NCBI RefSeq assembly: GCF_007970665.1
Contig: NZ_CP042430.1
Span: 1,426,001-1,490,000 of the forward strand
Direction: 5' to 3'
DNA: 64,000 nucleotides
DNA from: Baekduia soli
Lineage (GTDB): Bacteria; Actinomycetota; Thermoleophilia; Solirubrobacterales; Solirubrobacteraceae
The position numbers and the translations under genes are program-made. Every line of letters starts with the position of its first letter. Within the stretch, counting starts at the first letter, position 1. The notes under the pieces were generated by a model. The model was given only the letters and a program-made list of their open reading frames with translations. It searched no databases and was not told the origin of the DNA. Positions 1-23,115 of this stretch are shown piece by piece.

Positions 1-3000
1 TCGAACGCGTGAGGCACCAGCCACGATGGAAGCCCTCCGCGGGAGGAGTACGACCGAACGTCTCTGGAACGCTCTGCACGACTCCGCAGTACCGACACGT
101 TTCGAACCGGGACGCACGAATATCGTCGCGCCCCCCGAGGCTCACGCTGTCGCCCGGCTTGTCGCGGTGACCGACGTTCAGCCAGCGCAAAGTCGCCACG
201 GCATACTCGAACCCGAACGGCTGGTCCTCGTTTCTTGCGCGCCAGGCACGCTCGGGACGGACATCATCGGGGTCGACGTCGACGGTTGTGACGATCGTGA
301 ACGGTGTTCGCTCACGGTCTTCGGTGTCGTCGCTGATTCGGGCGTTCTCCTCGCTCGACTGCGCAGAGGAGCCGGTGAACGGGAGGACCAAGTGGCGTGA
401 TTGCGCGTCGGCGATCGAGGGGCTCGAGCAACGCGGGCAAGTACCAGGTGCGCCCTGGTCTGCGGTGCCGTACCCACATTCGGGACAGAGCCACCATCGC
501 TCATACGCCGGCTCGCTCGCCGGACCGAGGTCGAGGGCATCCACGATCACACGATGTCCACCCGCGTAGAACCGCGCCCCCGGCGCGAGCTCGCGGATCG
601 CGAGCGTCGCCGGCCGCTTGTACTCGATGTTTTCCGTCCTGTAGTCACCGTCGGCGGTCGGCGCCCAAAGCGCGACGTTCAGGGTGACGCCATGGTCGAC
701 GAGCGTGTAGTTTGGGAGCAGCCCGAGTCGCTCGAGCGCCGTCGGCGTGTACTCCTCACGCAGCTTCTGAAACCGGCCGATCGTCGCCTTTCGCTCACCC
801 AAGAGCGACTTAAGCTCGAACTCCTCGTCCTCAGTCCTGGTCGACCTTGCTTGCAGGTCTTTGATGCGCTTGGTGAGCCGATCGCGGCGAAGCTGGAGGT
901 CCTTGTACTCGGCATCCCACTCACCCAGCCGACCCAGCACGCGGTCGTCGAACCCGTCCTTGGCAAAGTCACGGAGTCGCTCAGCGGTCGCCTTCGATAC
1001 GTGTCTGCCGAACCCTTTGAGGAACGTATTGACGTACGAGGCGGGATCGGCATGGTGCGTCGCGAGGATCGTTCTGAGGACGCCATTCATGTCCGCGGAG
1101 TCCTTCACAAGCCCACCGATACGCTGCGGCATCGCCGCCACCGGAATGCTGCCGTCGGCGGCACGATCCAGCACGAACGCGACGTACTGGCGGCGCAGGA
1201 TCTCGATCGCGTCAAGCCAGCAACTCGGCGGGCGCACGACGCCGGCGATCATGTGCCGGGGATCGGTGAGGAAGTACAGGCTCCGAGGTTCCGTCCGCAC
1301 GAAGGTCGTCACGAGCGCGTTCCCGCTCGCGCGACCGGCGCGACCCACACGCTGCACGTACGACGCGGACGATCTCGGAACAGAAGTCAGCATCACCGCG
1401 GACAGATCCCCGATATCGACTCCCATCTCGAGCGTCGGTGTACATGCGAGCACGTTTGGCGTCCCGGGCGCATGCCCGTGCTTGAACGCATTCTCTAGTC
1501 TTTCCCGCGTCTGGCGGTCAAGCCCCCCAGTGTGCTCGGCGGCCACCGTTCGCCGCGGCGTGCCGCTTCGATAGAGCCGCCGGTAATAGGCGCTGGCCTC
1601 GCGTGCGATCGGCTCGTACCGTCCGGGACAGCGGTAGCGCAGACACGGCGCGTTGTCCCATATCGCGACGTTCTGCAGCGGGGCGGCATGGCGGTGAGCG
1701 CAGACTCGGCATCGGAGCACTGGGCTGTCGCCGGTGGGGACGTCGTGCACGGCGATCCCGGATGGCTCAAGTCCGTAAATCGTATTGCCCTTCGTGCTCT
1801 TCTGCGTGGAGATCACGTCCTCCGCGGCGAGCAGCGTGAGCACGACGCGAGTGAAGTCGCGGGCATAGCCCAACGGAAGTCTCAGCGTCCGGCTGGCCCA
1901 GTCCGCGGTCCAGACAGGACTGCCACCTCGACTCTCAAGCGCGTCAAACGGCGATCCTTGCGCGTCGATCAGAAACGTCGGCGCGCTTTGGCCACTCGGG
2001 AACGCCGGCAACCCATCCGGACGCCCGCCCCAGATCAGGTAGCGACGCCCTTCGTCTTTCACGTAGCTCTTGAGCCAAGGATGGAAGATCGCTCCTTGAA
2101 GTCGTGTCCGCTCGAGGAGGCCGCGCAAGTAGACCTTCGGATCCTCGAAGCTCTCCGTCTCAGGGACCAGCTCGATCTGTGCGACCAGGTCGTCTCGTGC
2201 TTCGATCACCAGGGCGGCCAGGTGATCAATGTCAGTGACCGGCACCTCCGCGGCGAGTGCCCCCGTGAGTTCAATTGTCCGTCCGAGCCGTGCCCGCAGT
2301 CCGAACTCGAGGTGGGTTTCGAACTCAACGCGTCGGCCGAGAATCTGACTTGCCCCCGGCGCCTTGGGCTCGCCATCCCACAGCGTTCGGATGCCGAAGT
2401 GACGCAGGAGATCCGGCGGAACGAGTTCGTAAAACTCCTCCGCTGGCGTCGAGGAACTCGCCGCCGCGCGCATTAGCTCGGGACCAAGTTCCGCCAGAGT
2501 AAGCCGGCCATCCTGCGAATCCTTGACGATCGATGTGATCGCGATGCGCTGGTTGAAGCGATGTGTTCGCCCGTTGAAGAACGCTGCTCGATGCGCTGCG
2601 TCTTGAACGGAATCGGTGAAGGCGAGCAGCTTGCGCTCGCCGTCGTCGACGAGCTCCGAGCCGAACAGCTGCGAGATCGACACCGAGGCGAGGCTCGCGA
2701 CACGACTTCCGACAAACCGGATCCCTTCGATGCCGCCGCATGACGGACACTCGCTCCGGCGTGCCTCGTCGTCGCCGGGCGTCACAAGAACGGGCAAGCA
2801 CGCCGGCCGCGGTTTGACGTGCAGCGCGACATGATCGGGGTCGAGGTACTGCACGCCTGCCTCCTCGGATGAAGACCGGATCAGCGCCCGGAGCCGTGGA
2901 CTGCTGCGGACGCTGTCCTCGTAGACACCGGACTCGACGAACGACAAGGAGGCATTCATCTCCGACGAACGCGCCATCCAACCCGTTCTGCCGCACAGCC

Positions 3001-4465
3001 GGCAGTAGATCGCGGGCGCCGTCGGTGGCGGCTCCTCCTCCGGGAGCTCCTCTGGTTCGGGCGCGGCGCCGTCGAGCCAACGAAATTCGGGTGCTGCCTG
3101 AACGAGCCGCGTTACGCGTGAGACCTCTCGGATCCACAGCTGGACCTCAACCGAGAACAAGGGAACCGGAGATCCCCCAGAGGGCCCGGGCCGACGAGCT
3201 ACCGATAGCAGCCCCAAGTAGAGAGCGACGGCGTGCTCCACGGCTCGGCGATCGCGACCGAGATGCGGACCCCACTCCGAGACGCGAAGGGCGATCTCTT
3301 CGATTGCGTCTGCGACTGGCGTCGGCCGCCCGCCGACAGCTCCGAGGACCGCGCGCGTCATGCGGTGGGCAAGGAGCGTGTCACCCAGGTCGACCGCGCT
3401 TCCCGGCGTGCGCCCGATGAACGCTGCGGCAACGTCATCCATGTCCGTACCGTCAAGGGTGCGCAAGTCATCGATTTCCGGGGCGGGCAAGTCCCAGTCG
3501 ACGGGCTTGCAGCAGTCGTTGACCGACTCTCTGCGCTCGACGATGACCGAGTCGGTTTGGAACGGGCGCCCGAACACGGACTCCGCGAATTCACGGAGAG
3601 CGTCCGCGCCGGCGGCAGAGTCGCCGAGGGTCGCCGACGTCGCCACTGGGGCGACCGAACCCAAGGGTCCATGCGAGGAATCGCCGAGGCCTAGAGTCAC
3701 ACCGAGGCGGCGGAGCAGCATGGCGACATCGGTCCCCTGTGCGCCGTCGTATGTGTGGAACTCGTCAAGGACGAGGTAACGCAGCACCCCCGCTCCAGTC
3801 TCCGCCCACAGCTCACGGTCTGTGTCCCGCAGTAGCAGGAAATCCAGCATCTTGTAGTTCGTCAGCAGGATGTCGGGCGGGGCCGACCGCAGGGTGTGCT
3901 GGTCGTCGATGATGCGCGACTCCGTCATCACCGAGGTGCCGCTGCTCTCCCCGCCGACGAAGATCCCCGCGCGCACCCCCGCGAGCTCCGAGTGCTCATG
4001 AATTGTGCGCGCAATGCGACCCGCCTGGTCAGAGGCGAGCGCGTTCATCGGATACAGGATCAGCGCTTTGATCCCGGGCTGACCGGCGTGGACCGCGCGC
4101 GCACAGTGGTCGAGGATCGGCGTCAGGAAGCACTCGGTCTTGCCGGAGCCCGTCCCCGTTGTAACCAGCGTCGGCTGTGGCTCACCGTCGCGAGATCCCA
4201 GCCGTTCGAACGCCTTCGCCTGATGCTCGAATGGCTGGAAGTCCTTTGGCATCCAATCAAGTGGCGATCGCTGAAGCCACGCCGGATCAACGCGCTTGAA
4301 CGGCGTCCGCACCCGCAGGAAGGGACCGCGGAAGATCCCGTCGGTGTCATCCGTGAGAAAGTCGATCAGCGCGCCCCGCGTCTCCTCGTCTCCGATTGCA
4401 AACGTCGTGGACAGGTACTCGACGATAGCTTCCCGCAATTCCGTCGCCGCCAGACTCGGAATCAT
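1..4465 (-). CDS. Large DEAD/DEAH-box helicase with Cys pairs, DISARM DrmA/DrmB-like (3' end cut by window)
   Basis: One frame is open from an ATG at 4465 to the window edge, giving at least 1488 codons with no stop; the end of the gene lies to the left. Residues 104-110 are a Walker A (GTGSGKT). YPMNALASDQ follows near 139-148, and DEFH with the family-typical TYDGAQGTD lies at 234-246. A second RecA-like half near residues 1000-1045 holds TPTLEMGVDIGDL and QRVGRAGR. Cys pairs occur near residues 487 (CRLC), 575 (CPSC), 1323 (CPEC...CPRC) and 1458 (CRYC), as in helicases carrying a DUF1998/MZB zinc-binding domain. The start overlaps the methyltransferase stop as ATGA, so translation is probably coupled. 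The likely role is DNA translocation in an anti-phage complex. The family call is firm; the DISARM assignment is inferred from its neighbours. Confidence 0.85.
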   Translation of the reverse strand, partial: MIPSLAATELREAIVEYLSTTFAIGDEETRGALIDFLTDDTDGIFRGPFLRVRTPFKRVDPAWLQRSPLDWMPKDFQPFEHQAKAFERLGSRDGEPQPTLVTTGTGSGKTECFLTPILDHCARAVHAGQPGIKALILYPMNALASDQAGRIARTIHEHSELAGVRAGIFVGGESSGTSVMTESRIIDDQHTLRSAPPDILLTNYKMLDFLLLRDTDRELWAETGAGVLRYLVLDEFHTYDGAQGTDVAMLLRRLGVTLGLGDSSHGPLGSVAPVATSATLGDSAAGADALREFAESVFGRPFQTDSVIVERRESVNDCCKPVDWDLPAPEIDDLRTLDGTDMDDVAAAFIGRTPGSAVDLGDTLLAHRMTRAVLGAVGGRPTPVADAIEEIALRVSEWGPHLGRDRRAVEHAVALYLGLLSVARRPGPSGGSPVPLFSVEVQLWIREVSRVTRLVQAAPEFRWLDGAAPEPEELPEEEPPPTAPAIYCRLCGRTGWMARSSEMNASLSFVESGVYEDSVRSSPRLRALIRSSSEEAGVQYLDPDHVALHVKPRPACLPVLVTPGDDEARRSECPSCGGIEGIRFVGSRVASLASVSISQLFGSELVDDGERKLLAFTDSVQDAAHRAAFFNGRTHRFNQRIAITSIVKDSQDGRLTLAELGPELMRAAASSSTPAEEFYELVPPDLLRHFGIRTLWDGEPKAPGASQILGRRVEFETHLEFGLRARLGRTIELTGALAAEVPVTDIDHLAALVIEARDDLVAQIELVPETESFEDPKVYLRGLLERTRLQGAIFHPWLKSYVKDEGRRYLIWGGRPDGLPAFPSGQSAPTFLIDAQGSPFDALESRGGSPVWTADWASRTLRLPLGYARDFTRVVLTLLAAEDVISTQKSTKGNTIYGLEPSGIAVHDVPTGDSPVLRCRVCAHRHAAPLQNVAIWDNAPCLRYRCPGRYEPIAREASAYYRRLYRSGTPRRTVAAEHTGGLDRQTRERLENAFKHGHAPGTPNVLACTPTLEMGVDIGDLSAVMLTSVPRSSASYVQRVGRAGRASGNALVTTFVRTEPRSLYFLTDPRHMIAGVVRPPSCWLDAIEILRRQYVAFVLDRAADGSIPVAAMPQRIGGLVKDSADMNGVLRTILATHHADPASYVNTFLKGFGRHVSKATAERLRDFAKDGFDDRVLGRLGEWDAEYKDLQLRRDRLTKRIKDLQARSTRTEDEEFELKSLLGERKATIGRFQKLREEYTPTALERLGLLPNYTLVDHGVTLNVALWAPTADGDYRTENIEYKRPATLAIRELAPGARFYAGGHRVIVDALDLGPASEPAYERWWLCPECGYGTADQGAPGTCPRCSSPSIADAQSRHLVLPFTGSSAQSSEENARISDDTEDRERTPFTIVTTVDVDPDDVRPERAWRARNEDQPFGFEYAVATLRWLNVGHRDKPGDSVSLGGRDDIRASRFETCRYCGVVQSVPETFGRTPPAEGFHRGWCLTRS

Positions 4466-7400
4466 TCGACACCGCCCCCGTACCGTTCGGCGAATACGAC
4501 GTATGCCCGGCGCATGTCAGCCTCACGGTCTGGCTTCGTGAACGGTGGATCGAAGCGCCCAACGCTAGTGCCATCCGGGTCGGCCGCGTACGCTCGCCAG
4601 ACGTCACGGGGCACCTCGCGTCCGCTCTGGTCATACCGCATGAGGTGCTCGTACTTGCGGAGTACACCGAAGGTCGTGCGATAGATCCCGCAGAGCTGGT
4701 CGGCAGACAGGCCAAGCAACAGTGCCGACAGGGCATCGAGTTCAACCAGCGCATGCCGACGCGCGTAGGCCATCCGTAGCGGAGTGTTGACGGACCACGA
4801 CCTCGAGGCGTCTTCGAATGTTGGGAGGCGTGCGTCGTCACTTGTCCAGGCGTCCTGTGCGAAGTTTGCCTCGGCGAAGAGGTCCGCCCAAATCTCGCCA
4901 AAGTCGGCCGTGAGACAGTTAAGTCGCAAGGTGCGCGCCATGAGCGGACGAAACAATGCGTCGTCCGTGGGTAGAGGGAAGGGCCGGATCAGCTCGCCGC
5001 GGACGTTGTCCTTACCGGACGCTTTGACGAGAAAATCGAGGGGCAGCGACGACCAAAGACCGACGATTCTGACAGTCCACGCATCATCGCGCCCCACCAG
5101 CGAGTTGCACACGTCGACGTGAAGAGGCCCGGGGGGAATCAGCGCGGCTTGGAGCGTTCGCTCACCCAGAGGATCGACTCGGCGACTGAAGCAGCACCGA
5201 TACCGCTCAGTCGATGGGCGACCGTCCCAATCCTCCGCCAGCGACACGGTCGACTTGTGTCCAACAAGCGCGAAGTTTGTTCGTGGGACATGCGTAGCTG
5301 GAAGCGATTCGAGATCGGTTGCGGTGTAGTCGCGGTGGTTCCGGCACGGGACATTGGGCTCCTTGTAGAACGGAAGCGATACGTGAATGTGTGGCCCTTG
5401 GAGAATGGCCTCGTGCCACGACGCCGGACTCGTGCTCGTCCGAACGATGTCACCGTCTCGGACTGCACCAGTTTCGTCCAATCCACGACTGAGCCAAAAA
5501 TGATGTTGCCCTAGTCGACTGGGACTCCTGGCTAGAGTTGCAAGCACTTCCAGGTCGTCAATCGTGTACGGCAATACCAGCCGGGCGTCGAGCGCATCGC
5601 TCTCCTCGGAGAAGAGTTCAGCCCACGAGCGGATGACTCCCTCATCAACGTGGATTACTCGAGCCGAATGCGGCCGACGATCGGGGTCGCCCTCGGCGGT
5701 CTTCATGCCCGGCGGCTCGCCTTCTCCGTCGTGGACCAACGATAGGTCGACTGTGGAAGGCACACGCGCGTTTGCGATGAACCTGAACCCAACTGGCCCC
5801 GCGTCCCCGTATACCATCAACGCATAGGGTCGCGTGTTGCCTATCTCTTCAAACAGCTTGTCGCCGTTGTTGAAGTGCCAGAACCTGCGGATCCGCTCGT
5901 ACGCGGCGGCTCTGAGTCGAGCGCCATGGGGATCGAAGAAGAATCCGCTCGGATGCACCAGACCCGAGATTCCCGATGCGCGCTGGTGGCGCCAAGCCGC
6001 CACAAGAAAGCCCAGGAAGAGATTGTTGTGAAGCCCGACCGTGAGCGGTGACAGAGGCGGATCGGACAAGAACGTTGCTGTCGCCTCGACAGAGGCAACC
6101 TCCTCCAAGTACGCCCGCCGGTCTTCTTCCACCGCTAGCGTCAGCCCTCGGCGCTGCTTGATGACGTCGGCGGCTGGGCGATTGGTCAATCCGAACCACG
6201 GATCGAACTCGGCTAGTGCATCGATGTCATTCCATTCGGGTCTTACCCAGGGCGGGTTTCCGACCTGCAGGTCAAAGCCGCCTCGCTGAAACACGGGCGC
6301 AAATTCAAGCTCCCAGTGAAAGAAGCCTTCACGGCTGGCGATGTCGCACGCGATCCCGAGCCATGAATGCTGTTGACGTACTTGATCGACCGTCGGCATC
6401 AACAACCCGGCCGCGAGCTCAGCCTCGCGCGCCTCGAGCGCGTCGAGATCAGCAAACAGGTCGATTTGTGCTGGCCGAGCCACAGCATGGTCAGCTGGGT
6501 CGATGCCAAGAAGCCCCTCGAGCGCTGACAGCCACTCGGTGCGTGTAGGCGGGGAGATCTCGCCGGTTGGCTCAAGTGGCCAGAACCACATTGCGCACCA
6601 GGCGTCCATCGCCAGCCGCAGTCGCGCCAGCGGGGTGTTCTCGTCGCCCAGCGAGACCTCGAGTGCAGCCCGCGTCGTCCGTCCACCGCCCTCTCCTGCT
6701 TTGGTGTCCGGGTAGAGCGCGAGCGGTCGGCGCAGGTCTTGCTCAGCGAGCTTGAGCCGTACGGTCGCGAGCTCCCACAGCGCTTCAACGCGGCCGGCCA
6801 GCGCGGCATATCGAGCGATGTCGTTCTCGCTGAGTTTGTCGGTGACGCCCTTGTGCCATTGCTTGAGCGTCTCAACTGCGTCGGCTCGCAGCTCCTGCGC
6901 TTCCCTCGTGCCCGCCACGGCGCCCCACCCCTCGGCGGGCAACAGGAAGTGGTGGACTTCCCCTGAGGCCAATGCGTCGGCCGCTAGGGCGCGATCCTCA
7001 GGGATCGCCTTGAGCCACTTCCTCCCCTCGAGCTGGGCACCGGAATAGACCGCGCGACGCGCGCCGATGAGCGAGTTACCGCGACGCAAGTGCAGGCCAA
7101 ACCATGGCGCGCGCAATCCCGGGTGCATAGCGTTGAGCCACAGCGAGACCTCCGCGAGTTCGACCGCGGTGGCATTGAGGTCCACGCCATAGCTCTGGTG
7201 TAGTGCAAAGTGCGTTTTGACCTTCTGGAGCTCGGTCGCGTATTTTTCTGGATCGATCGTGTCCTCGAGCTCGGTCTGCTTACGCGCCAGGTACTCGGCC
7301 GAGAGCTGGTTGATCGCCTCGTTTAGGAAGGCGCCGGAGCCGAGCGCCGGCTCGCAGATCGTGAGATCGAGAACGGCGTCAGCGCTTGTCGTCTGCCCGT

Positions 7401-9051
7401 TCTGATCGAGGAGTTCCTCAAGCGCGTGCTTGACGACGCAGCGCGTCAGAACTTCCGGCGTGTAATACGAGGCCGAGCGCTGGCGATCACGACCCGAGAG
7501 GCGATAGACAAACGAGCCTTTCTTGTGGGTGACGCGGCGTGAGACGCCGTCTTCGCCGATCTCGGTGACGAACACGTCGTCGTCGTACTTGTCGGACATG
7601 CCGACGGGCACAACCCACGTGCCGTGTTTCTCCTCCGACCCGGGCTTGCGGACTTCGTGCAGGTCCTCGTCCGCCAAGAAGCCGGTGTATGCCATGAGTC
7701 CCTCGTAGACGGCACCGAGTTGGTTGATCCCGAGCGTCGCGTAGGAGACGAAGCGCCGTTCCCGGCCCCCTTTCTCCTCAGTCAGCAACAGCCGCGCGAG
7801 GATGCGCTGTACGACCTCGTTGCGCACCCTGATGGAGTCGAGCAGCGGTGTGGCGTTCGGTCCGAACAGCTCAGAGTTCAGCGGCTCAAAGATCAGGCCC
7901 GTGTCGTCGATCGCGTCGCCGGGCTCGGTGAACTGCTGCTGCGCGAACTCGTAGTGATAGCCATCGTTTACTAGCTCGAACAGGATGTCGAGCGAGTCGT
8001 GCAGGTGGGTGCCATCGTTTGCGTGGTCGGTCGTGAGTTCGGTGAGCGCGAGCTCGCGAAGGCGGTCGAGGCCGTATCCATCCCGATAGCCCTCGCCAAG
8101 GCTGGGAACGATGCCCAAATCGGGCCGTGCCTCGGCATAGAGAAGGAAGAGGATTCGGTAGAGGAAGCGGAGGGACTCGCGGGTGAGGCGACGCGCCACG
8201 TCCGGCTCGTTGTAGATCCTGAGGTTCTTCGCGAGGCGCTGTGTAACGATCTCGTTTGCCACGTCTTCGATGGAGCGTCGGACGCCCTCACGCAAATCCT
8301 CCGAGACGCCGATCGCTTGCTTGAGGGAACTCGTCCCGAGTTCATCGATGATCGCCTCACCGGTCTCCCCGGGAACGAGGGCGTCGCGCGAGAACAGCGC
8401 CGCAATGGTGTCGAGCTCGCCTTTGGGCCTGACGTCGTTGCGACCTAGAGCGAGGTCGAGATCGACAGCGAGGAACCGTCCTTCGGGCCAAGAGTCCCTC
8501 GCGCACAGCACCAGAGTCGCGCCGGCCAGCAGGAGAATATGGCGCGGCGGATCGTCGACCGTGAATGCAAGACTGATCGCCTTCGTGGGCTCCGCGATCT
8601 CGGCCCCGTCCAGGATGAGCGGCTCAACGAGCCTCGAGTCGGCCCCGAGTGCTTCATCCGGCGATGTCGCGTACAGCGCTTCGAGCGCAACAAGGCGCAA
8701 ACCCGTGGGCAGAGTGGTGTCGTGCGCCACCGGGAGAGCGACGGGGACCACCTCTCCCCGCGTAGTCTCGATCGCGTGGCGCGCTGGCTTGAACCCAAGA
8801 GATGTGAGGACGGCGTCGTGGAGGGCCCGAAGTGGCTCCAAGTCGCGGCCTACCTCGGCTGTCTCGGCGTCCAGCTTGAGCTTGGCGAACGGGGCACGGA
8901 GTGAGCGAACGCCACGGCGCGATGTCTGCTCGTCGAGTTGCTCCCGCGCGTCCCAGTCGGCGCGCAAGCCCTTGAGATCGGTCGCGATGATCGCCTCGAG
9001 GTAATGATCGGAGAAGAACTCCTGGTTGTTGGTGATCGACGGGAAGCTCAT
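4462..9051 (-). CDS. Giant DNA adenine methyltransferase (DrmMI/PglX/Eco57I-like), 1529 aa
   Basis: This is a gamma-type N6-adenine DNA methyltransferase embedded in a very long protein. Residues near 529 read SASYYTPEVL, a typical entry to the catalytic domain. Near 567 lies motif I (CEPALGSGAFL), which binds S-adenosylmethionine. Near 932 is NPPW, the catalytic motif IV. About 500 residues precede the catalytic core and about 550 follow it, the latter probably holding target recognition, as in PglX of BREX and DrmMI of DISARM. The gene overlaps the upstream helicase stop and the downstream helicase start by 4 nt each (ATGA), so the three are translated as a unit. The inferred role is to mark self DNA while the helicases act on unmodified DNA. 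No separate endonuclease is visible in the window. Confidence 0.88.
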   Translation of the reverse strand: MSFPSITNNQEFFSDHYLEAIIATDLKGLRADWDAREQLDEQTSRRGVRSLRAPFAKLKLDAETAEVGRDLEPLRALHDAVLTSLGFKPARHAIETTRGEVVPVALPVAHDTTLPTGLRLVALEALYATSPDEALGADSRLVEPLILDGAEIAEPTKAISLAFTVDDPPRHILLLAGATLVLCARDSWPEGRFLAVDLDLALGRNDVRPKGELDTIAALFSRDALVPGETGEAIIDELGTSSLKQAIGVSEDLREGVRRSIEDVANEIVTQRLAKNLRIYNEPDVARRLTRESLRFLYRILFLLYAEARPDLGIVPSLGEGYRDGYGLDRLRELALTELTTDHANDGTHLHDSLDILFELVNDGYHYEFAQQQFTEPGDAIDDTGLIFEPLNSELFGPNATPLLDSIRVRNEVVQRILARLLLTEEKGGRERRFVSYATLGINQLGAVYEGLMAYTGFLADEDLHEVRKPGSEEKHGTWVVPVGMSDKYDDDVFVTEIGEDGVSRRVTHKKGSFVYRLSGRDRQRSASYYTPEVLTRCVVKHALEELLDQNGQTTSADAVLDLTICEPALGSGAFLNEAINQLSAEYLARKQTELEDTIDPEKYATELQKVKTHFALHQSYGVDLNATAVELAEVSLWLNAMHPGLRAPWFGLHLRRGNSLIGARRAVYSGAQLEGRKWLKAIPEDRALAADALASGEVHHFLLPAEGWGAVAGTREAQELRADAVETLKQWHKGVTDKLSENDIARYAALAGRVEALWELATVRLKLAEQDLRRPLALYPDTKAGEGGGRTTRAALEVSLGDENTPLARLRLAMDAWCAMWFWPLEPTGEISPPTRTEWLSALEGLLGIDPADHAVARPAQIDLFADLDALEAREAELAAGLLMPTVDQVRQQHSWLGIACDIASREGFFHWELEFAPVFQRGGFDLQVGNPPWVRPEWNDIDALAEFDPWFGLTNRPAADVIKQRRGLTLAVEEDRRAYLEEVASVEATATFLSDPPLSPLTVGLHNNLFLGFLVAAWRHQRASGISGLVHPSGFFFDPHGARLRAAAYERIRRFWHFNNGDKLFEEIGNTRPYALMVYGDAGPVGFRFIANARVPSTVDLSLVHDGEGEPPGMKTAEGDPDRRPHSARVIHVDEGVIRSWAELFSEESDALDARLVLPYTIDDLEVLATLARSPSRLGQHHFWLSRGLDETGAVRDGDIVRTSTSPASWHEAILQGPHIHVSLPFYKEPNVPCRNHRDYTATDLESLPATHVPRTNFALVGHKSTVSLAEDWDGRPSTERYRCCFSRRVDPLGERTLQAALIPPGPLHVDVCNSLVGRDDAWTVRIVGLWSSLPLDFLVKASGKDNVRGELIRPFPLPTDDALFRPLMARTLRLNCLTADFGEIWADLFAEANFAQDAWTSDDARLPTFEDASRSWSVNTPLRMAYARRHALVELDALSALLLGLSADQLCGIYRTTFGVLRKYEHLMRYDQSGREVPRDVWRAYAADPDGTSVGRFDPPFTKPDREADMRRAYVVFAERYGGGVE

Positions 9052-11858
9052 GCGGCTGGGAGGATCGCGCCGACCACGCGAAGCAGCGGTTGGCCGTGAC
9101 TGGACATCCGGTCAGCCAGCAGCTCGGCATCGGTGCGCACCTGAGCGGCCTTTTCGCGCTCGGTCGTCTTCGTGGCGAGCTCGAGGGTGAGTTGCTCCCA
9201 CGACTGGGCTCGGGCGCGCATCCGCGCGAGCTCCTGCTCGAGTCGTGATTCTTGCTCGGCGCGACGCTCGATCACGTACGCCTTGGCCTTATCGACGGCC
9301 TTTGGGATCAGCGCCTGCGCCGCCGTGATGTCGAGCTCGGCACCGGTGTTCACCATGCTTGGGCCGATGCCGGCGGCCTTCAGGACGGCCGGCAAGGGTT
9401 CAACGTGCACATCTCCTGACGCTGTTCGCTCAGCCGCGAGCCACTCGACGACCGTGGCCTGCCCGCGTTGATTGGAACACATCGCCAGCAGAAGCACGAC
9501 AGGGCTGGCGACGTCACCGATAAATACAGGAGCTTCACCGCGCCCGAAGTTGGCGAGCACCTTGTCGACCAGCCATTCGACGACCGGGTGCTGCTCGCCG
9601 AGGTATCCCGTCTCTGGCCACATCGTGCCCTCGGCCCGCTGCGCTGCGACGAGCTGCGCTGTGGCGACGTCTTTGTCGGTCGTAAGCTTGAGACGCTGCG
9701 TGATCTTGCGCTCGTTGAGGTAGCTCTGCGGGAGCACGCTCAGACGACGCTGAAGGTCACGCGGGGGATCGAATGCCAAGAACGAGTTCTCGGGTTCGAT
9801 CGCGATATTCAGTTCCGTGTGGGGCTTCTTCGACTCCTCCTCAAGAGCCTCGTGGACGAACGTGGCGTGGTCCTCGACCAGCGTGATCGGCTCTGCGACC
9901 TCGACGGGCCCGCTGTCGGTTCCGCCTGCCATGAGAGCCAGAAGGTCGAAGCTGTCGAGGTCGGGCTCCTCAGGGACCGCGCTCTCCGCGCTCTCGCCGG
10001 CAGCCAGCGCCTTGGCTATCGCGTCCTCCTCGAGGTCGACCGCGTGCAACCCCATGAGGGCGGCGGCCTCGCCGAGCGTCTGATGGATCTCGTGTTCCTT
10101 CTCGAGCAGCCGTTTCAGGACAGCGAGGTCGCCCCGGACCTTGTCGTGGTCGGGTTGGAGCAGGAGCGCGCGGATCTCAGGCGCGTGTCGCTGCCCGTAG
10201 CGATCGATCCGCCCGTTGCGCTGATCGATGCGGATCACGCTCCAGGGAAGGTCGAAGTGGATCAAGTGATGGCAGGACTTGTGAAGGTTCACACCCTCGG
10301 AGGCAACGTCGCCCGTGAACAGTAGGCGAAGCGGTCTGGAGTCCTGGCCAAACTCCTCGACGATTCGCATCTGCTCGGTGTCGGGCAGGCCGCCGTGCAT
10401 GACAGCCACGGCCTTGTCGGGCAGTTTCAAGGCCTTCGACACGGTTTCGGCGAGCCAGTGCAGCGTGGCGATCCGTTCGGAGAACACGACGACTCGTTCC
10501 GTCGATCGAGGACCCACTCCGAGCGTCTTGAGTTCGTCAATGAGGCGCCGAAGCTTGGCGCTGGAGTCATCGTCGATCTGGTCGTTGAGGGCGGCGAGCT
10601 CGGCGAGAGCGCCATCCTCGCGCTCTTGTTCCTCGGTCTGCCCCACCGCTGGGCTCAGTTTCTTGCGCCGCTCGAGAATGGTGTCTCGCAGAGCGACGTG
10701 GGACGACAGGAATGCCTTTAGGAGGGTCCACGGAAATAGGCGGCTTCCTTTGCCGCTCACCGGCGACCCGCCGGCGCCGGGGTACAGCCAGGCGCCCGCC
10801 AGCTCGGCGATCACAGCGTTCTCGCGTGGGCTCGCGGGCACTGCAATCGGCTTCGGCGGAAGGCGATCGGGGAACTGGTGGCCAACCTCCGCTGCAACGT
10901 CCTTCTTGAAGCGACGGATGTAGAGGTGCTCAATGTCCTCGCGCTTGTACGACTTCGGGTCGGCGATGGCAGTCGGATCAAGCATGCGGATCAGCTCAGC
11001 GAACGACTCGCGCTTGCCGTTGTGCGGCGTGGCACTCGTCAACAGCAGTGCATCCGTGCGCGGCGCCAAGAGGCGGGCGAGGCGGTTTCGAAACGCCGAG
11101 CGGTTCGCCACGTTGTGGCATTCATCGATCACGACCGCGTCCCAGTGGATTCGCTCGAGGTGCGGTCCGTACTGCCCAGGATTCTTCAGGGTGTCGATCG
11201 AGACGATCACCCGCTTGTAGAAGCTGAACGGGTTCCGCGTTCGCGGGATCTTCTGCCACACGCGCTCAACGCCCTGGGAGTCCAAGCGGACGAGGGGGAG
11301 GCAAAACCGCGTCCAGAGCTCATGCTGGAACTGCTCGAGAATGTGCCTCGGCGTGACGACGAGGATCCGCTCGCCGCGGCCGCGCCGGATGAGCTCGGAC
11401 AGAATCATCCCGACCTCGAGCGTCTTGCCGAGCCCCACCGCGTCAGCGATGAGCAGCCGAGGGCGCGGCTGCTCCAGCGCCAGAGCTACCGCGCGCTCCT
11501 GGTAGTCGAGTGGGTCGAGCAGCTGGCGATGCCCAATCGCCGGGCGGATCTCGGTGACGGGCAGGGGAGTCCGTCGCAATAGCGCCTCGAGGTAAAGGCG
11601 TCCGCGGCGAAAGCCGGGCGAATCGTCATGGACGAGCGTTGTATCCTCGGGCCGCAGCGGCTTGATGTCGTCGAGGTTCGTGAAGAACGTCGCCTCCTGG
11701 TCGCGCACAAGCTCGGAGAGACCGGTGGCGCGGACCAAGAGACCATCCGCTTTCGTCTGCTGGACGCGGGTGATCAGCCAGTCCTCGTCGCGCACCTCAA
11801 CACGCGCGCCGGCGGCAAGGAGAGGGATCGCAGCTGTAGGGGTACTCAACCTCGACAC
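9048..11858 (-). CDS. SNF2-family helicase/translocase (DrmD-like), first gene of the defence operon
   Basis: This 936-aa protein has a complete SNF2/RapA-type superfamily 2 core. Residues 141-146 are motif I (VGLGKT), 245-248 are DECH (motif II) and 274-279 are TSATPH (motif III). Near residue 550 are the C-terminal helicase motifs, including DVASEGVNL and QRNGRIDRYGQ. The C-terminal third has a charged, probably coiled-coil stretch rich in Glu and Arg. The start is GTG at 11858, preceded by AGGAGAGG; an ATG at 11869 is out of frame and stops after seven codons. The last codons overlap the methyltransferase start. SNF2 proteins beside PglX-like methylases are the DrmD component of class 1 DISARM, but SNF2/methylase pairs also occur in other defence loci. 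Confidence 0.85.
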   Translation of the reverse strand: MSRLSTPTAAIPLLAAGARVEVRDEDWLITRVQQTKADGLLVRATGLSELVRDQEATFFTNLDDIKPLRPEDTTLVHDDSPGFRRGRLYLEALLRRTPLPVTEIRPAIGHRQLLDPLDYQERAVALALEQPRPRLLIADAVGLGKTLEVGMILSELIRRGRGERILVVTPRHILEQFQHELWTRFCLPLVRLDSQGVERVWQKIPRTRNPFSFYKRVIVSIDTLKNPGQYGPHLERIHWDAVVIDECHNVANRSAFRNRLARLLAPRTDALLLTSATPHNGKRESFAELIRMLDPTAIADPKSYKREDIEHLYIRRFKKDVAAEVGHQFPDRLPPKPIAVPASPRENAVIAELAGAWLYPGAGGSPVSGKGSRLFPWTLLKAFLSSHVALRDTILERRKKLSPAVGQTEEQEREDGALAELAALNDQIDDDSSAKLRRLIDELKTLGVGPRSTERVVVFSERIATLHWLAETVSKALKLPDKAVAVMHGGLPDTEQMRIVEEFGQDSRPLRLLFTGDVASEGVNLHKSCHHLIHFDLPWSVIRIDQRNGRIDRYGQRHAPEIRALLLQPDHDKVRGDLAVLKRLLEKEHEIHQTLGEAAALMGLHAVDLEEDAIAKALAAGESAESAVPEEPDLDSFDLLALMAGGTDSGPVEVAEPITLVEDHATFVHEALEEESKKPHTELNIAIEPENSFLAFDPPRDLQRRLSVLPQSYLNERKITQRLKLTTDKDVATAQLVAAQRAEGTMWPETGYLGEQHPVVEWLVDKVLANFGRGEAPVFIGDVASPVVLLLAMCSNQRGQATVVEWLAAERTASGDVHVEPLPAVLKAAGIGPSMVNTGAELDITAAQALIPKAVDKAKAYVIERRAEQESRLEQELARMRARAQSWEQLTLELATKTTEREKAAQVRTDAELLADRMSSHGQPLLRVVGAILPAA

Positions 11859-12854
11859 GGGCCTAGCATCCTCTCCTAGTTTCGAACTTGCTCGCGTGTC
11901 TTGGCCCTGGCCTCGCGCCCATGCATCTCCACCCGCTAAGACGTCCCGCCGTCACTCCTCTCGGAGCGCCGGCGGTGCGCGTCGTATCCAGTCGTGTCAT
12001 GGGCAGCAGACCTGACGCGCCACGTCACGCCACGTCGGCACCAGCGCGCTGTTGTTCAGCCGATGTGAGCTGTTAGACCCGGCAGTGGCCGCAGCTTCCG
12101 CCATCAGTCGATCGGCATTTTGGTGGACCTCCGTGCGCGAACCGAGGTGCCGGCAGTCCGAAATAAGCGAGTGGCGCAGTGGCAACCACCGCTAACGATC
12201 GGGGCGCGTGCAGGGGCGTAAGGCCAACTCAAGCCGTGACGGCCGCGAAACAGGGTCGTGGTGTCCCGCGTGGGGGCAAGCATCTGAGTCGCTGGCGTGG
12301 CACGGCCGAACATGTCTGTGTGTCTTCGTAGCCTTGGGTGCTCTCAGTACCGAGTATCGCCGGCGCTAACGGGCGATCGATTCGCGGGCCACCGGTGCCA
12401 CCAGTCCGCTGCCGCAGGCCGTCAGCACGGCGCGGGAAGCCTATCTCGCCAGCGCCCACGGTCGACTGACTGGTGTCCGTGCCAGGATGAGCCCTTGCTT
12501 GGGTTCGGGTTGAACGGTTTGGGCTTCTCGCCTGCTCGCTGCTCCTCCGCACCTGGTTACGGGTGAGGGCTGTCCTTTCGTTGACTCCTTTCGTCTGTCG
12601 AGGGGCCCACCACTGCGGATCGCCCAGTGTTCACAGGGTTCTTGGACCTGGGCCTGACCCCGACCACCCGCGCCCTCCATGAGAACAGAGACGAGCGGGC
12701 TCGGGTGGTCGGACTCAGTCCCAGGGATGGCAGGAGGCCAGGGGCTTGCGGTGGTGGGCCCAGCAGGACTAGAGGTCAGTACGAGTACCAGACCAGGAAC
12801 CCAGGAGACAGAGAGAACAGAACAACAACATGAACAACAGGCGGGAAGCGGCGC
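11859..12854. other. Non-coding stretch of about 1 kb between the defence operon and the island replication/transfer gene
   Basis: No reading frame here has convincing protein character on either strand. The interval contains the presumed promoter of the leftward operon, whose AGGAG-type ribosome site is just upstream of 11858, an imperfect 26-bp inverted repeat near 12650-12722, and an A-rich leader (12815-12840) before the rightward gene at 12855. Its position between two divergent island genes suits a control region or an origin, but no origin family is recognised. Confidence 0.5.
12650..12722. repeat. Imperfect 26-bp inverted repeat with 21-nt spacer
   Basis: The left arm (12650-12675) and the reverse complement of the right arm (12697-12722) agree at 22 of 26 positions. 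The core CCGACCACCCG / CGGGTGGTCGG is perfectly paired over 11 bp. The spacer is 12676-12696. There is no T-run after the right arm, so it is not a typical intrinsic terminator. It lies about 130 bp upstream of the replication-relaxation-like gene and could be an operator, an origin hairpin or an RNA structure. Confidence 0.6.
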
Positions 12855-13676
12855 ATGGACGCGAGGGGACGGGCGACGGCGCAGGAGCGAGCGGACGCTG
12901 CGGTGGCGGCGGGTGAGGGGTGGCCGGTTCAGCGCGGTCGGCGTGACGTAGTAGAGGCAGAGCGGGATCAGGAGTGGCTTGGGTGGACGGGCCGGTTTCG
13001 GTTTGTCACGACGGACCTGTTGGCGTTGCGGTTCGGGGTCAGCGTGCAGGCCGCGCGGGGACGGGTCAGGCGCCTGGAGGGCGAGGGGCTGGTAGTCGCG
13101 GTGCGCGAGCATGTCTCGCAGACCCGGGCGATCTACCTGAGCACGAAGGGCGCGCGGCTGATCGGCCGGCGGCCGAAGCGCAAGCCGCCGCGCGTCGCGG
13201 TGCAGCGCGAGCACGAGCTGGCCATCGTCGAGCTCGCCGCCCAGCTTGAGCTCGCCGCCGACGGGCGAGTGGAGGTCTTGACCGAGCGTGATTGCCGTGG
13301 CCGCGAGGTCGACGGCCTGGGCCGCTACAGCGTCGACATCGTCGATGACCGCGGGATCACGAGTCGCCGCTGGCCCGATCTCATCGTCGGTCATGAAGGG
13401 CGAAGGGTGGCGATCGAGATCGAGTTCGCGAGTAAGGCTGCTAGCCGTCTAGCGAGCATCGTTGCTAGCTATCTCGCTAGCTCGCTAGCCGAGGTCCGGT
13501 TCCTCGTGGCCTCGCCGGCGTTGGCCGCACGGCTCGCGAGCCTCGTTGTCATCGAACGCGGTCGCCTAGTGAATCAGCGCATCACGCCGAGCACGGCCGT
13601 GACGATCGCCGCCTGGCACGGCGCCCCCGAACCCGTGCGCAACGAGATTCATCGGCGCCTGCAGCTCGGGCGCTGA
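12855..13676 (+). CDS. Winged-helix protein resembling replication-relaxation proteins of mobile elements
   Basis: The 273-aa protein has an N-terminal winged-helix region at about residues 45-110 (FVTTDLLALRFGVSVQAARG, then GEGLVVAV). Its C-terminal half shows PDLIVGHEGRRVAIEIEFASK at about residues 172-193, an arrangement like a PD-(D/E)XK nuclease core. Replication-relaxation family proteins of Gram-positive conjugative elements combine such a winged helix with a similar C-terminal domain, so a role in element replication or transfer is the best guess. The ATG has GGGAAG about 10 nt upstream. A cluster of GCTAGC hexamers lies inside the coding sequence (13440-13489), where Leu is written CTA, a codon otherwise avoided at this GC content. 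Function is not proven. Confidence 0.55.
   Translation: MDARGRATAQERADAAVAAGEGWPVQRGRRDVVEAERDQEWLGWTGRFRFVTTDLLALRFGVSVQAARGRVRRLEGEGLVVAVREHVSQTRAIYLSTKGARLIGRRPKRKPPRVAVQREHELAIVELAAQLELAADGRVEVLTERDCRGREVDGLGRYSVDIVDDRGITSRRWPDLIVGHEGRRVAIEIEFASKAASRLASIVASYLASSLAEVRFLVASPALAARLASLVVIERGRLVNQRITPSTAVTIAAWHGAPEPVRNEIHRRLQLGR
13440..13489. repeat. Cluster of four GCTAGC palindromes inside a coding region
   Basis: GCTAGC occurs at 13440-13445, 13464-13469, 13476-13481 and 13484-13489, with a related TCTAGCGAG at 13448. Spacings are 24, 12 and 8 nt. Within the reading frame the hexamers sit in more than one register, so a simple amino-acid repeat does not explain them. Iteron-like binding by an island protein is possible. 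Confidence 0.6.
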
Positions 13677-13878
13677 ACTGCGTCCGAGTGGTGCCCAGCG
13701 CGCCGTGCCGTAGGGCTGCGAGCCGGCGCGGGGGCAGCGAGGGAGGGCATCGGGCTTCCGCGCCCGAGGGGTGCCCGGTGATCCAGCGTTGCCCGGGCGC
13801 GGGGGACGACGCCACGCCGATTCACGTGCGAGCGTGGAGCCCGTGCGGGACCCTGCGGCCCGCAGCGCCCTACCGGGC

Positions 13879-14103
13879 ATGCCCACCCCCACCCACTTCG
13901 ACGAGACCATCGCCGTCTCCGTCAACCTCACTGAGCCGCTGCTGACCGCCGACCAGGTCGCCGACCTGCTCGCTGTCCCGCGGTCCAGCGTCTATGAGTA
14001 CGCGCGGCGCGCCCACAACCCGCTCCCGTCGATCGGCGTCGGCCGCCACCGCCGCTTCTATCGCAGCGACGTCGGCACCTGGCTCGCGTCGATGCGCTCG
14101 TGA
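13879..14103 (+). CDS. Excisionase-like helix-turn-helix protein (HTH_17/MerR-like)
   Basis: This 74-aa protein starts at an ATG (MPTPTHFDE). It carries one compact DNA-binding domain: LLTADQVADLLAVPRSSVYEY is the helix-turn-helix, and GRHRRFYRSDVGTWL is the wing and following helix typical of Xis/AlpA-type excisionases. It runs towards the integrase and their 3' ends overlap (14058-14103). Such proteins usually bend DNA at attachment sites to favour excision, and may also regulate element genes. A longer in-frame start at 13771 exists, but the extra residues are low-complexity and unlike the family. Confidence 0.75.
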   Translation: MPTPTHFDETIAVSVNLTEPLLTADQVADLLAVPRSSVYEYARRAHNPLPSIGVGRHRRFYRSDVGTWLASMRS

Positions 14104-15335
14104 AGCGGCGGCAGCTCGAGGCGCGCGGTCGCGGGCGCGAACGCCGCGTCGACGATCAGCGCGTCCTCGGGCCGCGGTGCGTAGTGCAGGTAGCGCATCG
14201 TGGTCTGCACGTCGGCGTGGCCCATCCACTCCTTGACGCGCAGGATGTCGGCCTTGGCGATCAGCGTCGTGCCGAACGTGTGGCGCAGGTCATGAAAGCG
14301 CAGCGGTCTCAGACCGGCGCGCTCCAGGGCATCCAGGTAGCGCCGGCGCAGCGCCGACCCGTCCAGATAGCCGCCGGTCTCACCCGGGAAGACAAGGTCG
14401 TCCTCGCCGGTCCACCGCCGGCGCTGGCCCAGCGAGGCCAGCGCGGCGGCGACCTCGCCGGCCATCGGCACGCCGCGGACCTTGCCGCTCTTGGGTGTCG
14501 TCAGGGCGTTGGCGGCATAGCTGGCCCGCACCCGCACCACCGAGCCCACGAAGTCGACGTCGCGCCAGCGCAGCGCCAGCAGCTCGCCACGCCGCAACCC
14601 GGTGAACGCCGCCGTCAGGAAGATCGCGGCGTCTTGCTTGCCGGCGGCGGCACGCACCAGCGCCCGGACCTCGTCGGGCGAGAAGACGTCGATCTCGAGC
14701 TTGCGCGCCACGCGCAGGGGCTCGACCTGGGCGGCCGGGTTGTGCTCCAGCCCATACATGCGCTGCGCACGGCGGAAGATCCCGTACAGCTCGACCAGCA
14801 GCTTGTTGCGCGTCCGCGGCCCCGTGGTCAGCGACGCGCGCCAGCGCTCGATGTGCACCGAGGTGATGTCGCGCACCGCCATCTCCCCGAACGCCGGGAT
14901 GAGCTGGTTCTGCACGCTGTTGCGATAGCCGCGCAGCGTCGAGGGCTTGCAGCCCCGGTCCTGCTCGACATAGCGCAGCCACTCACGCGCCGCCTGCACG
15001 AACGTCGCATCCGCGCCGGTCGACCCACCACATAAGAAACCGAATCGCGCCTGCTCCAAGCGGTCCTCCAACCACGCCTCAGCGGAGCGCTTGTCAAAGA
15101 AGCCCGGCGCCGGCCGCCCCTGGCCCGTCCACGCCGGCCCGATCTTCTTCTTGGTCTGTCGTCCACCCGGTGGGCGGTACTTGGCAAACCACGCCGGCCC
15201 GCTGGCCCGGTCCACGCGAAACACATGACCCGAACCACGCGGGACCTCATCGAACGCCACTTGTCCTTCACCTCGCTGAATCTTGGGACCCGTTTGGGGA
15301 CCTTTTTGCCTTCCAGCGAGAGGGCGATAGAACAC
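14058..15335 (-). CDS. int: Site-specific tyrosine recombinase (island integrase)
   Basis: The protein has an N-terminal arm-binding region, a SAM-like core-binding domain (VRDITSVHIERW, about residues 155-215) and a C-terminal catalytic domain. TGLRRGEL holds the first catalytic Arg, HDLRHTFGT holds the His-x-x-Arg pair, GHADVQTTMRYLHY holds the second His and the nucleophilic Tyr. The gene starts 30 bp from the tRNA-Arg 3' end, the classical arrangement for tRNA-targeting integrases. The GTG at 15335 gives 425 aa, but it lies next to a terminator hairpin. An internal GTG at 15260, preceded by GGTGAAGGA, would give about 400 aa and is a serious alternative. The catalytic residues are complete, so it may be active. 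Confidence 0.9.
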   Translation of the reverse strand: MFYRPLAGRQKGPQTGPKIQRGEGQVAFDEVPRGSGHVFRVDRASGPAWFAKYRPPGGRQTKKKIGPAWTGQGRPAPGFFDKRSAEAWLEDRLEQARFGFLCGGSTGADATFVQAAREWLRYVEQDRGCKPSTLRGYRNSVQNQLIPAFGEMAVRDITSVHIERWRASLTTGPRTRNKLLVELYGIFRRAQRMYGLEHNPAAQVEPLRVARKLEIDVFSPDEVRALVRAAAGKQDAAIFLTAAFTGLRRGELLALRWRDVDFVGSVVRVRASYAANALTTPKSGKVRGVPMAGEVAAALASLGQRRRWTGEDDLVFPGETGGYLDGSALRRRYLDALERAGLRPLRFHDLRHTFGTTLIAKADILRVKEWMGHADVQTTMRYLHYAPRPEDALIVDAAFAPATARLELPPLHERIDASQVPTSLR

Positions 15336-15337
15336 GA

Positions 15338-15354
15338 AAAGCCCCGCATGCGGG

Positions 15355-15359
<5 letters not shown>
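15338..15359 (-). terminator. Intrinsic terminator downstream of tRNA-Arg
   Basis: Read leftward, an almost perfect hairpin centred on CCCGCATGCGGG, flanked by AAAG and CTTTT, ends in a short T-run. It follows the tRNA 3' end by about 6 nt and precedes the integrase start. As it lies on the island side of the tRNA, it may have been brought in with the element. Confidence 0.65.
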
Positions 15360-15439
<80 letters not shown>

Positions 15440-15580
15440 AGCGACCCCGCAGTCTAGCCGGGTGCCCCGGGCCTTGCGGAGCCGTCCGCGCGACCGCCGG
15501 ACCGCGCCCCCGCTTGCCTCCGACCGACACCCGTCCTCCGCCGCTCAAGCCCCCCGCCTCCTGGCCGACCTCAGGAAGGC

Positions 15581-23108: not shown

Positions 23109-23115
23109 CCCGCGC

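What the first reader, a model, noticed from the sequence alone, without database searches (positions are those of the whole stretch)
1..11858. Three-gene helicase-methylase-helicase defence operon with an unusual DISARM-like architecture
A SNF2 helicase, a 1529-aa adenine methyltransferase and a helicase of at least 1488 aa are joined by two ATGA overlaps and ride on a tRNA island. Class 1 DISARM is known to combine DrmD (SNF2), DrmMI (adenine methylase), DrmA (helicase), DrmB (DUF1998) and DrmC (PLD). Here helicase core and zinc-type Cys pairs lie in one polypeptide, and no separate DrmB or DrmC is visible in the window. It may be a fused or minimal DISARM relative, or a distinct system.
Basis: partly seen in the sequence, partly recalled or inferred. 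Interest (0 to 1): 0.85.

Follow-up and report, generated by a model that had tools for sequence, protein, structure and literature searches.

The report
ARMADA Type II phage-defence operon
An actinobacterium carries, on a mobile island next to a transfer-RNA gene, a member of ARMADA, a recently described four-gene anti-virus system; it is a good new example of a known kind, with its fourth gene apparently broken, most likely by a sequencing error.

Summary
The three genes are real and overlap by ATGA as described. The window cuts the operon. In the complete genome the third gene runs on to 2064 aa, with the DUF1998 (MZB) zinc domain and a Vsr-like nuclease motif in the same chain. A fourth gene follows: a RelE-like domain fused to a UvrD helicase. 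This is the gene set and order of ARMADA Type II (ArmA-ArmB-ArmC-ArmD; Bell et al., bioRxiv, September 2025). All four proteins align over nearly their whole length with an E. coli operon (30-38% identity); all 8 residues mutated in the published test system are conserved. An ArmC tree puts the window with Type II, apart from Type I-like and Druantia III proteins. Canonical DISARM is not supported.

armD is split by a frameshift, but three more frameshifts (two of them seen by eye only) lie within about 23 kb, so an assembly error is likelier than decay. A 41-bp tRNA-Arg repeat bounds a 35-kb segment with Fic, Gabija-like genes and recBCD.

Side finding: in 22 of 69 related loci the armB-armC junction holds extra genes (GmrSD in 7 of 15 scanned); the other junctions almost never do. 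The window's own is empty.

Verdict: new member of a known kind.

The parts
9048..11858 (-). armA: SNF2/RapA-like (BrxHII/DrmD-like) helicase, 936 aa; Walker A K145, Walker B D245
4462..9051 (-). armB: PglX-like N6-adenine DNA methyltransferase, 1529 aa; GxG-type motif G571, NPPW N932; overlaps armA by ATGA
1..4465 (-). armC, first 1488 of 2064 codons in the window (the rest lies at G000:C1:1424271-1426000): YprA-family helicase; K109, D234; MZB/DUF1998 and Vsr-like nuclease motif lie beyond the window edge; overlaps armB by ATGA. armD (RelE-UvrD), outside the window at G000:C1:1422101-1424271, overlaps armC's stop codon and is frameshifted.
12855..13676 (+). Replication-relaxation-like protein of the mobile element (below Pfam's cut-off: 23.5 of 25.3 bits)
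13771..14103 (+). Excisionase-like small protein (HTH_17)
14058..15335 (-). Tyrosine-type integrase of the element
15365..15439 (-). tRNA-Arg(acg), integration target
15367..15407 (.). att-like repeat: tRNA-Arg 3' end, 41 bp, direct copy (97.6%) at G000:C1:1406080-1406120

Best explanation
The operon is an ARMADA Type II anti-phage system, carried on a tRNA-Arg-integrated segment of about 35 kb in an actinobacterium related to Candidatus Siliceabacter (Thermoleophilia). Most likely mechanism: ArmB methylates adenines in host DNA as a self mark. The two translocases ArmA (RapA/SNF2-like) and ArmC (YprA-like) engage DNA lacking the mark, or showing invader-type structure such as exposed single strands during replication. 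ArmC then destroys that DNA with its C-terminal PD-(D/E)xK (Vsr-like) nuclease domain while the cell survives. ArmD, a UvrD helicase with a RelE-like domain, is a required partner; its RelE part may add an RNA-cutting step. Shown here: gene identity, order, conserved active-site residues, RelE fold (of the nearest homologue), phylogenetic place. Published for the E. coli system, not shown here: defence activity, need for all four genes, non-abortive action. Inferred: self-marking by methylation, which DNA is recognised, that ArmC's nuclease does the cutting, what RelE does.
For: Matches to the E. coli ARMADA II proteins: ArmA 36.7% over residues 15-935 of 936; ArmB 35.0% over 1-1478 of 1529; ArmC 30.0% over 1-2037 of 2064; ArmD pieces 34.9% (3-560 of 571) and 37.7% (6-145 of 166). 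The E. coli locus is the published kind: in the O157:H7 copy ArmC is WP_000937974.1, the preprint's Type II representative, 99% identical to the copy compared. 8 of 8 residues mutated in the preprint (K136, D236; G605, N971; K110, D234; K266, D454) are the same residue in the window proteins. Of 80 related loci, 78 have armA before armB, 69 have armC after it and 56 show all four genes in order. ArmC tree: 15 Type II proteins incl. the window separate from 3 Type I-like and 2 Druantia III proteins with 100% support. MZB domain in ArmC; ArmC positions E1665, D1728, D1746, G1747, H1751, D1763 and R1767 identical in 62 of 62 aligned ArmC, K1766 in 98%. ArmD N-terminus (L008 homologue) has the RelE fold: Z 9.3, rmsd 2.2-2.4 over 82-84 residues.
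Against: armD is interrupted by a frameshift in this assembly, and in the published system loss of any gene abolishes defence; if the break is real, this copy is dead. The Vsr assignment of the ArmC C-terminus rests on motif conservation: fold searches gave only weak matches. 11 of 80 related loci show no armC: 6 end 2-2482 nt after armB, too short to tell, and 5 have 9.4-10.0 kb after armB without it. No methylome or phage data exist here for this strain. The Type I references in the tree were assigned by me from gene order.
Confidence: 0.93

Rival explanations
1. A class 1 DISARM variant (DrmD-DrmMI-DrmA with DrmB fused and DrmC lost).
For: PADLOC DrmD models hit gene 1 (309 bits) and DrmMI models hit gene 2 (177 bits); ARMADA shares these two genes with DISARM class 1 according to the preprint.
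Against: NCBIfam DrmD 330.6 of 610 bits; DrmA 30 of 999 and 14.4 of 950 bits. Gene 3 resembles DruE (319 bits) far more than DrmA (52 bits). DUF1998 is fused, and a RelE-UvrD gene follows that is not part of DISARM as the preprint describes it.
Confidence: 0.03
2. A Druantia-type system: gene 3 is DruE with unusual partners.
For: DruE3 is the best PADLOC hit of gene 3 (319 bits); ARMADA's YprA-like protein is most similar to Druantia's according to the preprint abstract.
Against: True E. coli DruE3 scores 2180 bits on the same model and E. coli ArmC only 347; gene 3 matches DruE3 only in separate stretches, and the tree separates them with 100% support. The neighbours identified are recD and a replication-relaxation-like gene; DruH was not searched for.
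Confidence: 0.01
3. ARMADA Type I with the reversed gene order reported for archaea and cyanobacteria.
For: That order (BrxHII-like, PglX-like, then YprA-like) looks alike.
Against: The RelE-UvrD gene is present, and the ArmC tree groups the window with E. coli, alphaproteobacterial and cyanobacterial four-gene systems, apart from three Type I-like ones.
Confidence: 0.02
4. A decayed ARMADA II remnant: armD truly broken, no function left (not exclusive of the identity as ARMADA II).
For: A frameshift splits armD. Of 55 other armD ORFs examined, 52 are one frame of 711 aa or more; the other 3 are cut by the end of the DNA.
Against: armA, armB and armC are open and conserved. Three further frameshifts lie within about 23 kb: one in recD by domains in different frames, a second in recD and one in a GGDEF gene by eye. 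This suggests indel errors of the assembly.
Confidence: 0.2

Closest known systems
ARMADA Type II of E. coli (ArmABCD; Bell et al. 2025, PMC12458937; ArmC WP_000937974.1)
   Same: Same four genes in the same order, same fusions (DUF1998 in ArmC, RelE in ArmD), 8 of 8 mutated residues conserved, tRNA-integrated element with integrase and excisionase.
   Different: 30-38% identity; tRNA-Arg instead of tRNA-Phe or tRNA-Leu; the other defence genes identified on the segment are Fic and Gabija-like ones (plus recBCD), not Druantia III and Zorya II, for which no dedicated search was made; armD frameshifted in the assembly.
ARMADA II locus of Candidatus Siliceabacter maunaloa (L008/L088)
   Same: Nearest relative found: ArmA 80%, ArmB 67%, ArmC 74%, ArmD 77% identity; same order with tight junctions.
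   Different: armD is uninterrupted there.
DISARM class 1 (DrmD, DrmMI, DrmA, DrmB, DrmC)
   Same: [quoted passage not shown] a YprA-family helicase at the core.
   Different: Helicase and DUF1998 in one chain, Vsr-like motif instead of a separate PLD nuclease gene in the operon, extra RelE-UvrD gene; DISARM models below cut-off.
Druantia III (DruH-DruE3)
   Same: ArmC and DruE are both YprA-family helicases with C-terminal nuclease regions.
   Different: Full-length DruE3 model not matched; the C-terminus shows a Vsr-like motif where the preprint gives PLD domains for Druantia III.

Membership tests
ARMADA Type II | First gene: BrxHII/RapA-like SNF2 helicase | tested here: met
   36.7% identity to E. 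coli ArmA over residues 15-935; BrxHII, DrmD and RapA hits
ARMADA Type II | Second gene: PglX-like adenine methyltransferase with NPPW and GxG motifs | tested here: met
   35.0% to E. coli ArmB over 1-1478; N932 and G571 aligned with N971 and G605; Eco57I domain
ARMADA Type II | Third gene: YprA-family helicase with DUF1998 in the same chain | tested here: met
   DEAD, Helicase_C and MZB over cut-off; 30.0% to E. coli ArmC over 1-2037
ARMADA Type II | C-terminal Vsr-type PD-(D/E)xK nuclease on the YprA-like protein | tested here: inconclusive
   Conserved PD, DG, H, D, KR positions in 62 ArmC. Sub-threshold profile hit to 3r3p, E 0.63. AF2 model of the L008 homologue, pLDDT 87.2, gives only weak fold matches (TnsA E 0.026; BsoBI Z 5.8, AbaSI Z 5.5, but an unrelated Mediator chain Z 6.2)
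ARMADA Type II | Fourth gene: GajB-like UvrD helicase with N-terminal RelE-like domain | tested here: met
   UvrD N and C domains on the two pieces, GajB profiles; RelE fold of the homologous N-terminus of L008. The gene is split by a frameshift in this assembly
ARMADA Type II | Strict gene order A-B-C-D | tested here: met
ARMADA Type II | YprA-like helicase falls in the Type II clade | tested here: met
   20-protein tree, 1464 columns, 100% support for the split from Type I-like and Druantia III (alignment, tree)
ARMADA Type II | BrxA-like, beta-barrel and MarR-like insertions in the YprA-like helicase | not tested
   Only CxxC motifs were listed: 7 in the window protein, 9 in the E. coli one
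ARMADA Type II | Anti-phage activity that needs all four genes | not testable with these tools
   Published for E. coli (PMC12458937)
DISARM class 1 | DrmA helicase | tested here: not met
   30 of 999 and 14.4 of 950 bits
DISARM class 1 | Separate DrmB with DUF1998 | tested here: not met
   MZB is fused inside gene 3; the next gene is a UvrD helicase
DISARM class 1 | DrmC PLD nuclease | tested here: inconclusive
   None in the four-gene operon; not every ORF of the 35-kb segment was scanned
DISARM class 1 | DrmD SNF2 helicase over curated cut-off | tested here: not met
   330.6 of 610 bits
Druantia III | Full-length DruE3 match | tested here: not met
   319 bits in separate stretches against 2180 for true DruE3
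Druantia III | DruH partner gene | not tested
   No search with DruH was made; the neighbours identified are recD and a replication-relaxation-like gene

The most novel reading that the evidence does not exclude
ARMADA Type II carries a conserved cargo slot. The junction between armB and armC, and hardly ever another, repeatedly accepts whole extra defence genes (GmrSD Type IV restriction enzymes above all; also TIR, AbiE, AIPR, Schlafen, macro-domain and helicase-nuclease genes), so the operon works as a nested defence platform in which modification-dependent enzymes may back up the methylation-based core. The window's operon is an empty-slot form.
Probability: 0.65. Interest if true: 0.45.

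Novelty: new member of a known kind. Interest (0 to 1): 0.3.

Why it matters
Members from this actinobacterial lineage, at 30-38% identity to the tested kind of E. coli proteins, show which residues and domains are constrained, including an invariant nuclease motif whose mutants are not among those named in the Results text I read. The armB-armC hotspot, if it holds up, would say that ARMADA II is assembled with interchangeable partners, and would point to combinations worth testing for synergy.

Tried and rejected
Canonical or minimal DISARM, Druantia III and Type I ARMADA were each considered and rejected (see rivals). Hma (HmaA hits gene 1 with 167 bits) was not pursued, because genes 2 to 4 fit ARMADA. 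PADLOC calls gene 2 'REase_MTase_IIG' over residues 2-1520 (961 bits); I read this as an older label of ArmB-like proteins, since the Pfam scan found only methylase domains in it and it sits in the ARMADA order in the related loci.

Empty-site test: the left flank of the island showed no match to the tRNA-Arg surroundings of three same-genus genomes, and the right flank only four weak tblastx pieces in one of them, so the empty site was not demonstrated; only the direct repeat supports the borders. A 13-mer scan for the repeat close to the operon found nothing; the copy lies farther out. recBCD inside the repeat-bounded segment: same-genus genomes carry it elsewhere, and the RecC family was found in 14 of 41 genomes, the own one included; whether it is cargo stayed open.

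Fold search of the ArmC C-terminus gave no match at E <= 0.001 and Z at most 6.2, that row being an unrelated Mediator chain; no Vsr protein stood out. PDB phmmer with ArmB found nothing at E <= 0.001. The PDB profile search with the ArmD N-terminus had only a weak RelE hit, E 0.17. The Pfam scan of it gave ParE_toxin in 2 of 32 members and ParE_like in 2 of 32, but also unrelated families; the fold search settled it. One search was run to find Type I references. A first ArmC tree without Type I proteins (32 proteins) gave the same place for the window.

Full report
WHAT IS THERE. On the minus strand the window holds three ORFs joined by two 4-base ATGA overlaps: 936 aa (11858-9048), 1529 aa (9051-4462) and at least 1488 aa (4465-2). 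The window is G000:C1:1426001-1490000 of a one-contig genome of 5.21 Mb. Reading on to the left, the third gene ends after 2064 aa at G000:C1:1424271, and a fourth gene starts in a TGATG overlap with its stop codon. The fourth gene encodes a 571-aa piece with the UvrD N-terminal domain and, in another frame, a 166-aa piece with the UvrD C-terminal domain. So it is a four-gene operon cut by the window edge.

WHAT IT IS. Gene 1 is a RapA/SNF2-like helicase. Gene 2 is a PglX-like adenine methylase with an Eco57I domain. Gene 3 is a YprA-family helicase with DEAD, Helicase_C and, at 1528-1615, the MZB/DUF1998 domain over Pfam's cut-off. Gene 4 is a GajB-like UvrD helicase. Its N-terminal part, tested on the homologue in L008 with 32 aligned sequences, has the RelE fold: pLDDT 90.6; top hits YoeB, RelE and YafQ (Foldseek E down to 7e-5; Z 9.3, rmsd 2.2-2.4 over 82-84 residues). 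This is the gene set of ARMADA Type II in Bell et al. 2025 (PMC12458937; I read the abstract, Results and Discussion, and figure legends, not the Introduction or Methods): strict order BrxHII-like, PglX-like, YprA-like, then almost always a GajB-like helicase fused to a RelE-like domain.

DIRECT COMPARISON. An E. coli plasmid locus (L006) and the E. coli O157:H7 EC4115 chromosome (L007) carry the system; the latter's ArmC is WP_000937974.1, the preprint's Type II representative. Against L006 the window proteins give: ArmA 36.7% over 15-935, ArmB 35.0% over 1-1478, ArmC 30.0% over 1-2037, ArmD pieces 34.9% and 37.7%. 8 of 8 residues mutated in the preprint are the same residue in the window proteins. 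True DruE3 of the same plasmid aligns with ArmC only in separate stretches. An ArmC tree of 20 proteins (1464 columns, IQ-TREE, LG+G4) separates 15 Type II proteins, the window included, from three Type I-like proteins (assigned by me from gene order: Deinococcus, Thermus, Dolichospermum) and two Druantia III proteins with 100% ultrafast bootstrap.

RELATED LOCI. Of the 80: 78 have armA before armB (the other two loci begin at armB), 69 have armC after armB, and 56 show all four genes in order. Of the 11 without armC, 6 end 2-2482 nt after armB, too short to tell, and 5 have 9.4-10.0 kb after armB without armC. Of the 12 with armC but no armD, 11 end within 2 nt of armC and one 728 nt after it. 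The nearest relative is Candidatus Siliceabacter maunaloa (L008; Thermoleophilia, Solirubrobacteraceae in NCBI taxonomy). Its contig equals that of handle G011 by length and match position, and G011 is listed in the window genome's own family; the window's genome itself is unnamed. ArmB-like full-length proteins are sparse: 3 of 61 genomes in the relatives search, the own one included, have a near-full-length match (11 of 61 have any at E <= 0.001), and 8 of 396 genomes across the phylum, again with the own one, have a match at E <= 1e-50. In E. coli the ArmC gene is in 518 of 5426 complete genomes.

THE BROKEN GENE. armD is split by a frameshift. Of 57 loci with armD after armC, 55 passed my score limit; 52 of these 55 have armD in a single frame of at least 711 aa, and the other 3, like the 2 dropped, are cut by the end of the fetched DNA. 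However, recD next door has its N-terminal and helicase domains in different frames and its C-terminal part in a further frame (by eye), and a GGDEF gene at 15581-16934 shifts frame near its end (by eye). Four frameshifts within about 23 kb of a high-G+C single-contig assembly point to indel errors. I cannot prove it without reads.

THE ELEMENT. A tyrosine integrase, an excisionase-like protein and a weak replication-relaxation match lie between the operon and tRNA-Arg. The 41 bp at the tRNA's 3' end (window 15367-15407) recur as a direct repeat, 97.6% identical, at G000:C1:1406080-1406120, where ARAGORN finds no tRNA gene. The segment between the repeats is 35.3 kb. It holds a Fic protein (SoFic profile 139 bits), a GajA/GajB-like pair (174 and 125 bits), recC-recB-recD and the ARMADA operon; not every ORF in it was scanned. 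This matches the preprint's description of ARMADA on tRNA-integrated elements with integrase and excisionase, though its repeats are 16-20 nt. The empty site was not shown.

MECHANISM. Published facts for the E. coli system: all four genes are needed; helicase and methylase motif mutants lose protection or part of it; infected cells stay largely intact, with lysis still apparent at the highest phage doses. A 2026 review (PMC12904381, passages only) lists ARMADA among modification-based systems whose way of restriction is unknown. From anatomy I infer self-marking by ArmB, recognition and translocation by ArmA and ArmC, and cleavage by the C-terminal nuclease of ArmC. Its residues E1665, D1728, D1746, G1747, H1751, D1763 and R1767 are identical in 62 of 62 aligned ArmC, and K1766 in 98%; fold matches of that region were weak. 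Passages of a 2026 preprint on Druantia III (PMC13192584, passages only) describe the related DruE as a helicase-nuclease loading on 3' single-stranded DNA, which makes a structure-based trigger plausible for ArmC. The role of the RelE domain is open.

SIDE FINDING. The armB-armC interval is at least 400 nt in 22 of 69 loci (0.7-9.7 kb), against 2 of 78 for armA-armB and 0 of 57 for armC-armD. On an ArmB tree of 76 tips (74 of the 80 loci, the 6 short ones dropped, plus window and E. coli), 27 labelled as carrying an insert (the 22, plus the 5 with no armC in 9.4-10.0 kb), the label changes 13 times; shuffles average 22.4, minimum 16 of 500. So the label clusters by clade but recurs. I scanned 20 hand-picked inserted ORFs from 15 of these 27 loci: GmrSD_N was found in 7 of 15 loci, TIR (ThsB) in 2, AAA/STAND-type ATPases in 2, and AbiEi/AbiEii, AIPR, Schlafen AlbA_2, macro domain and MTES_1575 nuclease-helicase in one each; 3 of the 20 ORFs had no match. 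Against independence: L018, L026, L028 and L052 share one small gene without a Pfam match (one copy scanned), and several Nocardia loci share their inserts; some of the longer inserts hold genes that do not look like defence genes (by eye). The preprint's main text has no occurrence of GmrSD, nested or accessory; a paper search on such nesting (search listing) returned no ARMADA study, but one passage of a 2026 BREX paper (PMC12839542, passages only) describes auxiliary nucleases inside BREX operons, so the principle has a precedent. The sample is the 80 best ArmB matches; by my reading of the record titles, not looked up, they are Actinomycetota except one labelled Planococcus. One cyanobacterial plasmid also has a small gene at this junction (L108). 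The window's own junction is empty.

VERDICT.

Noticed in passing
L009-L083, armB-armC junction: Hotspot of inserted genes between armB and armC in 22 of 69 loci; GmrSD in 7 of 15 loci scanned, also TIR and other defence genes; the other two junctions are almost always tight.
   Followed up: partly
G000:C1:1406080-1441407 (window about -19920 to 15407): tRNA-Arg repeat-bounded 35-kb segment with Fic (SoFic-like), a Gabija-like GajA/GajB pair, recBCD, ARMADA II, Rep-like, excisionase and integrase genes; recBCD has higher G+C (about 71-74%) than the parts beside it (about 65-68%).
   Followed up: partly
L003 8061-9898 and window 15581-16934: Frameshifts in recD (two, one of them by eye) and in an HDOD-GGDEF gene (by eye), besides armD: the assembly seems prone to single-base indels here.
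   Followed up: partly
L097:9844-10233: Just outside (and across) the left repeat lies an ORF resembling the C-terminus of the window's replication-relaxation-like protein (by eye): perhaps a remnant of an earlier element at the same site.
   Followed up: no
L005 (Tsukamurella plasmid) 2441-9146 and 16710-26903: ARMADA II with armC in two frames, preceded by UvrD, helicase and DUF1998 genes that look like a second helicase-based system, and followed by an extra UvrD gene.
   Followed up: no
L006 (E. coli conjugative plasmid): Druantia III directly upstream of ARMADA II on a plasmid; 15 of 525 ArmC places in E. coli genomes are on plasmids.
   Followed up: no
L112 (Deinococcus radiodurans pMP1) 9686-21182: YprA-like helicase, SNF2-type helicase and two methylase ORFs in the order described for ARMADA Type I.
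   Followed up: partly
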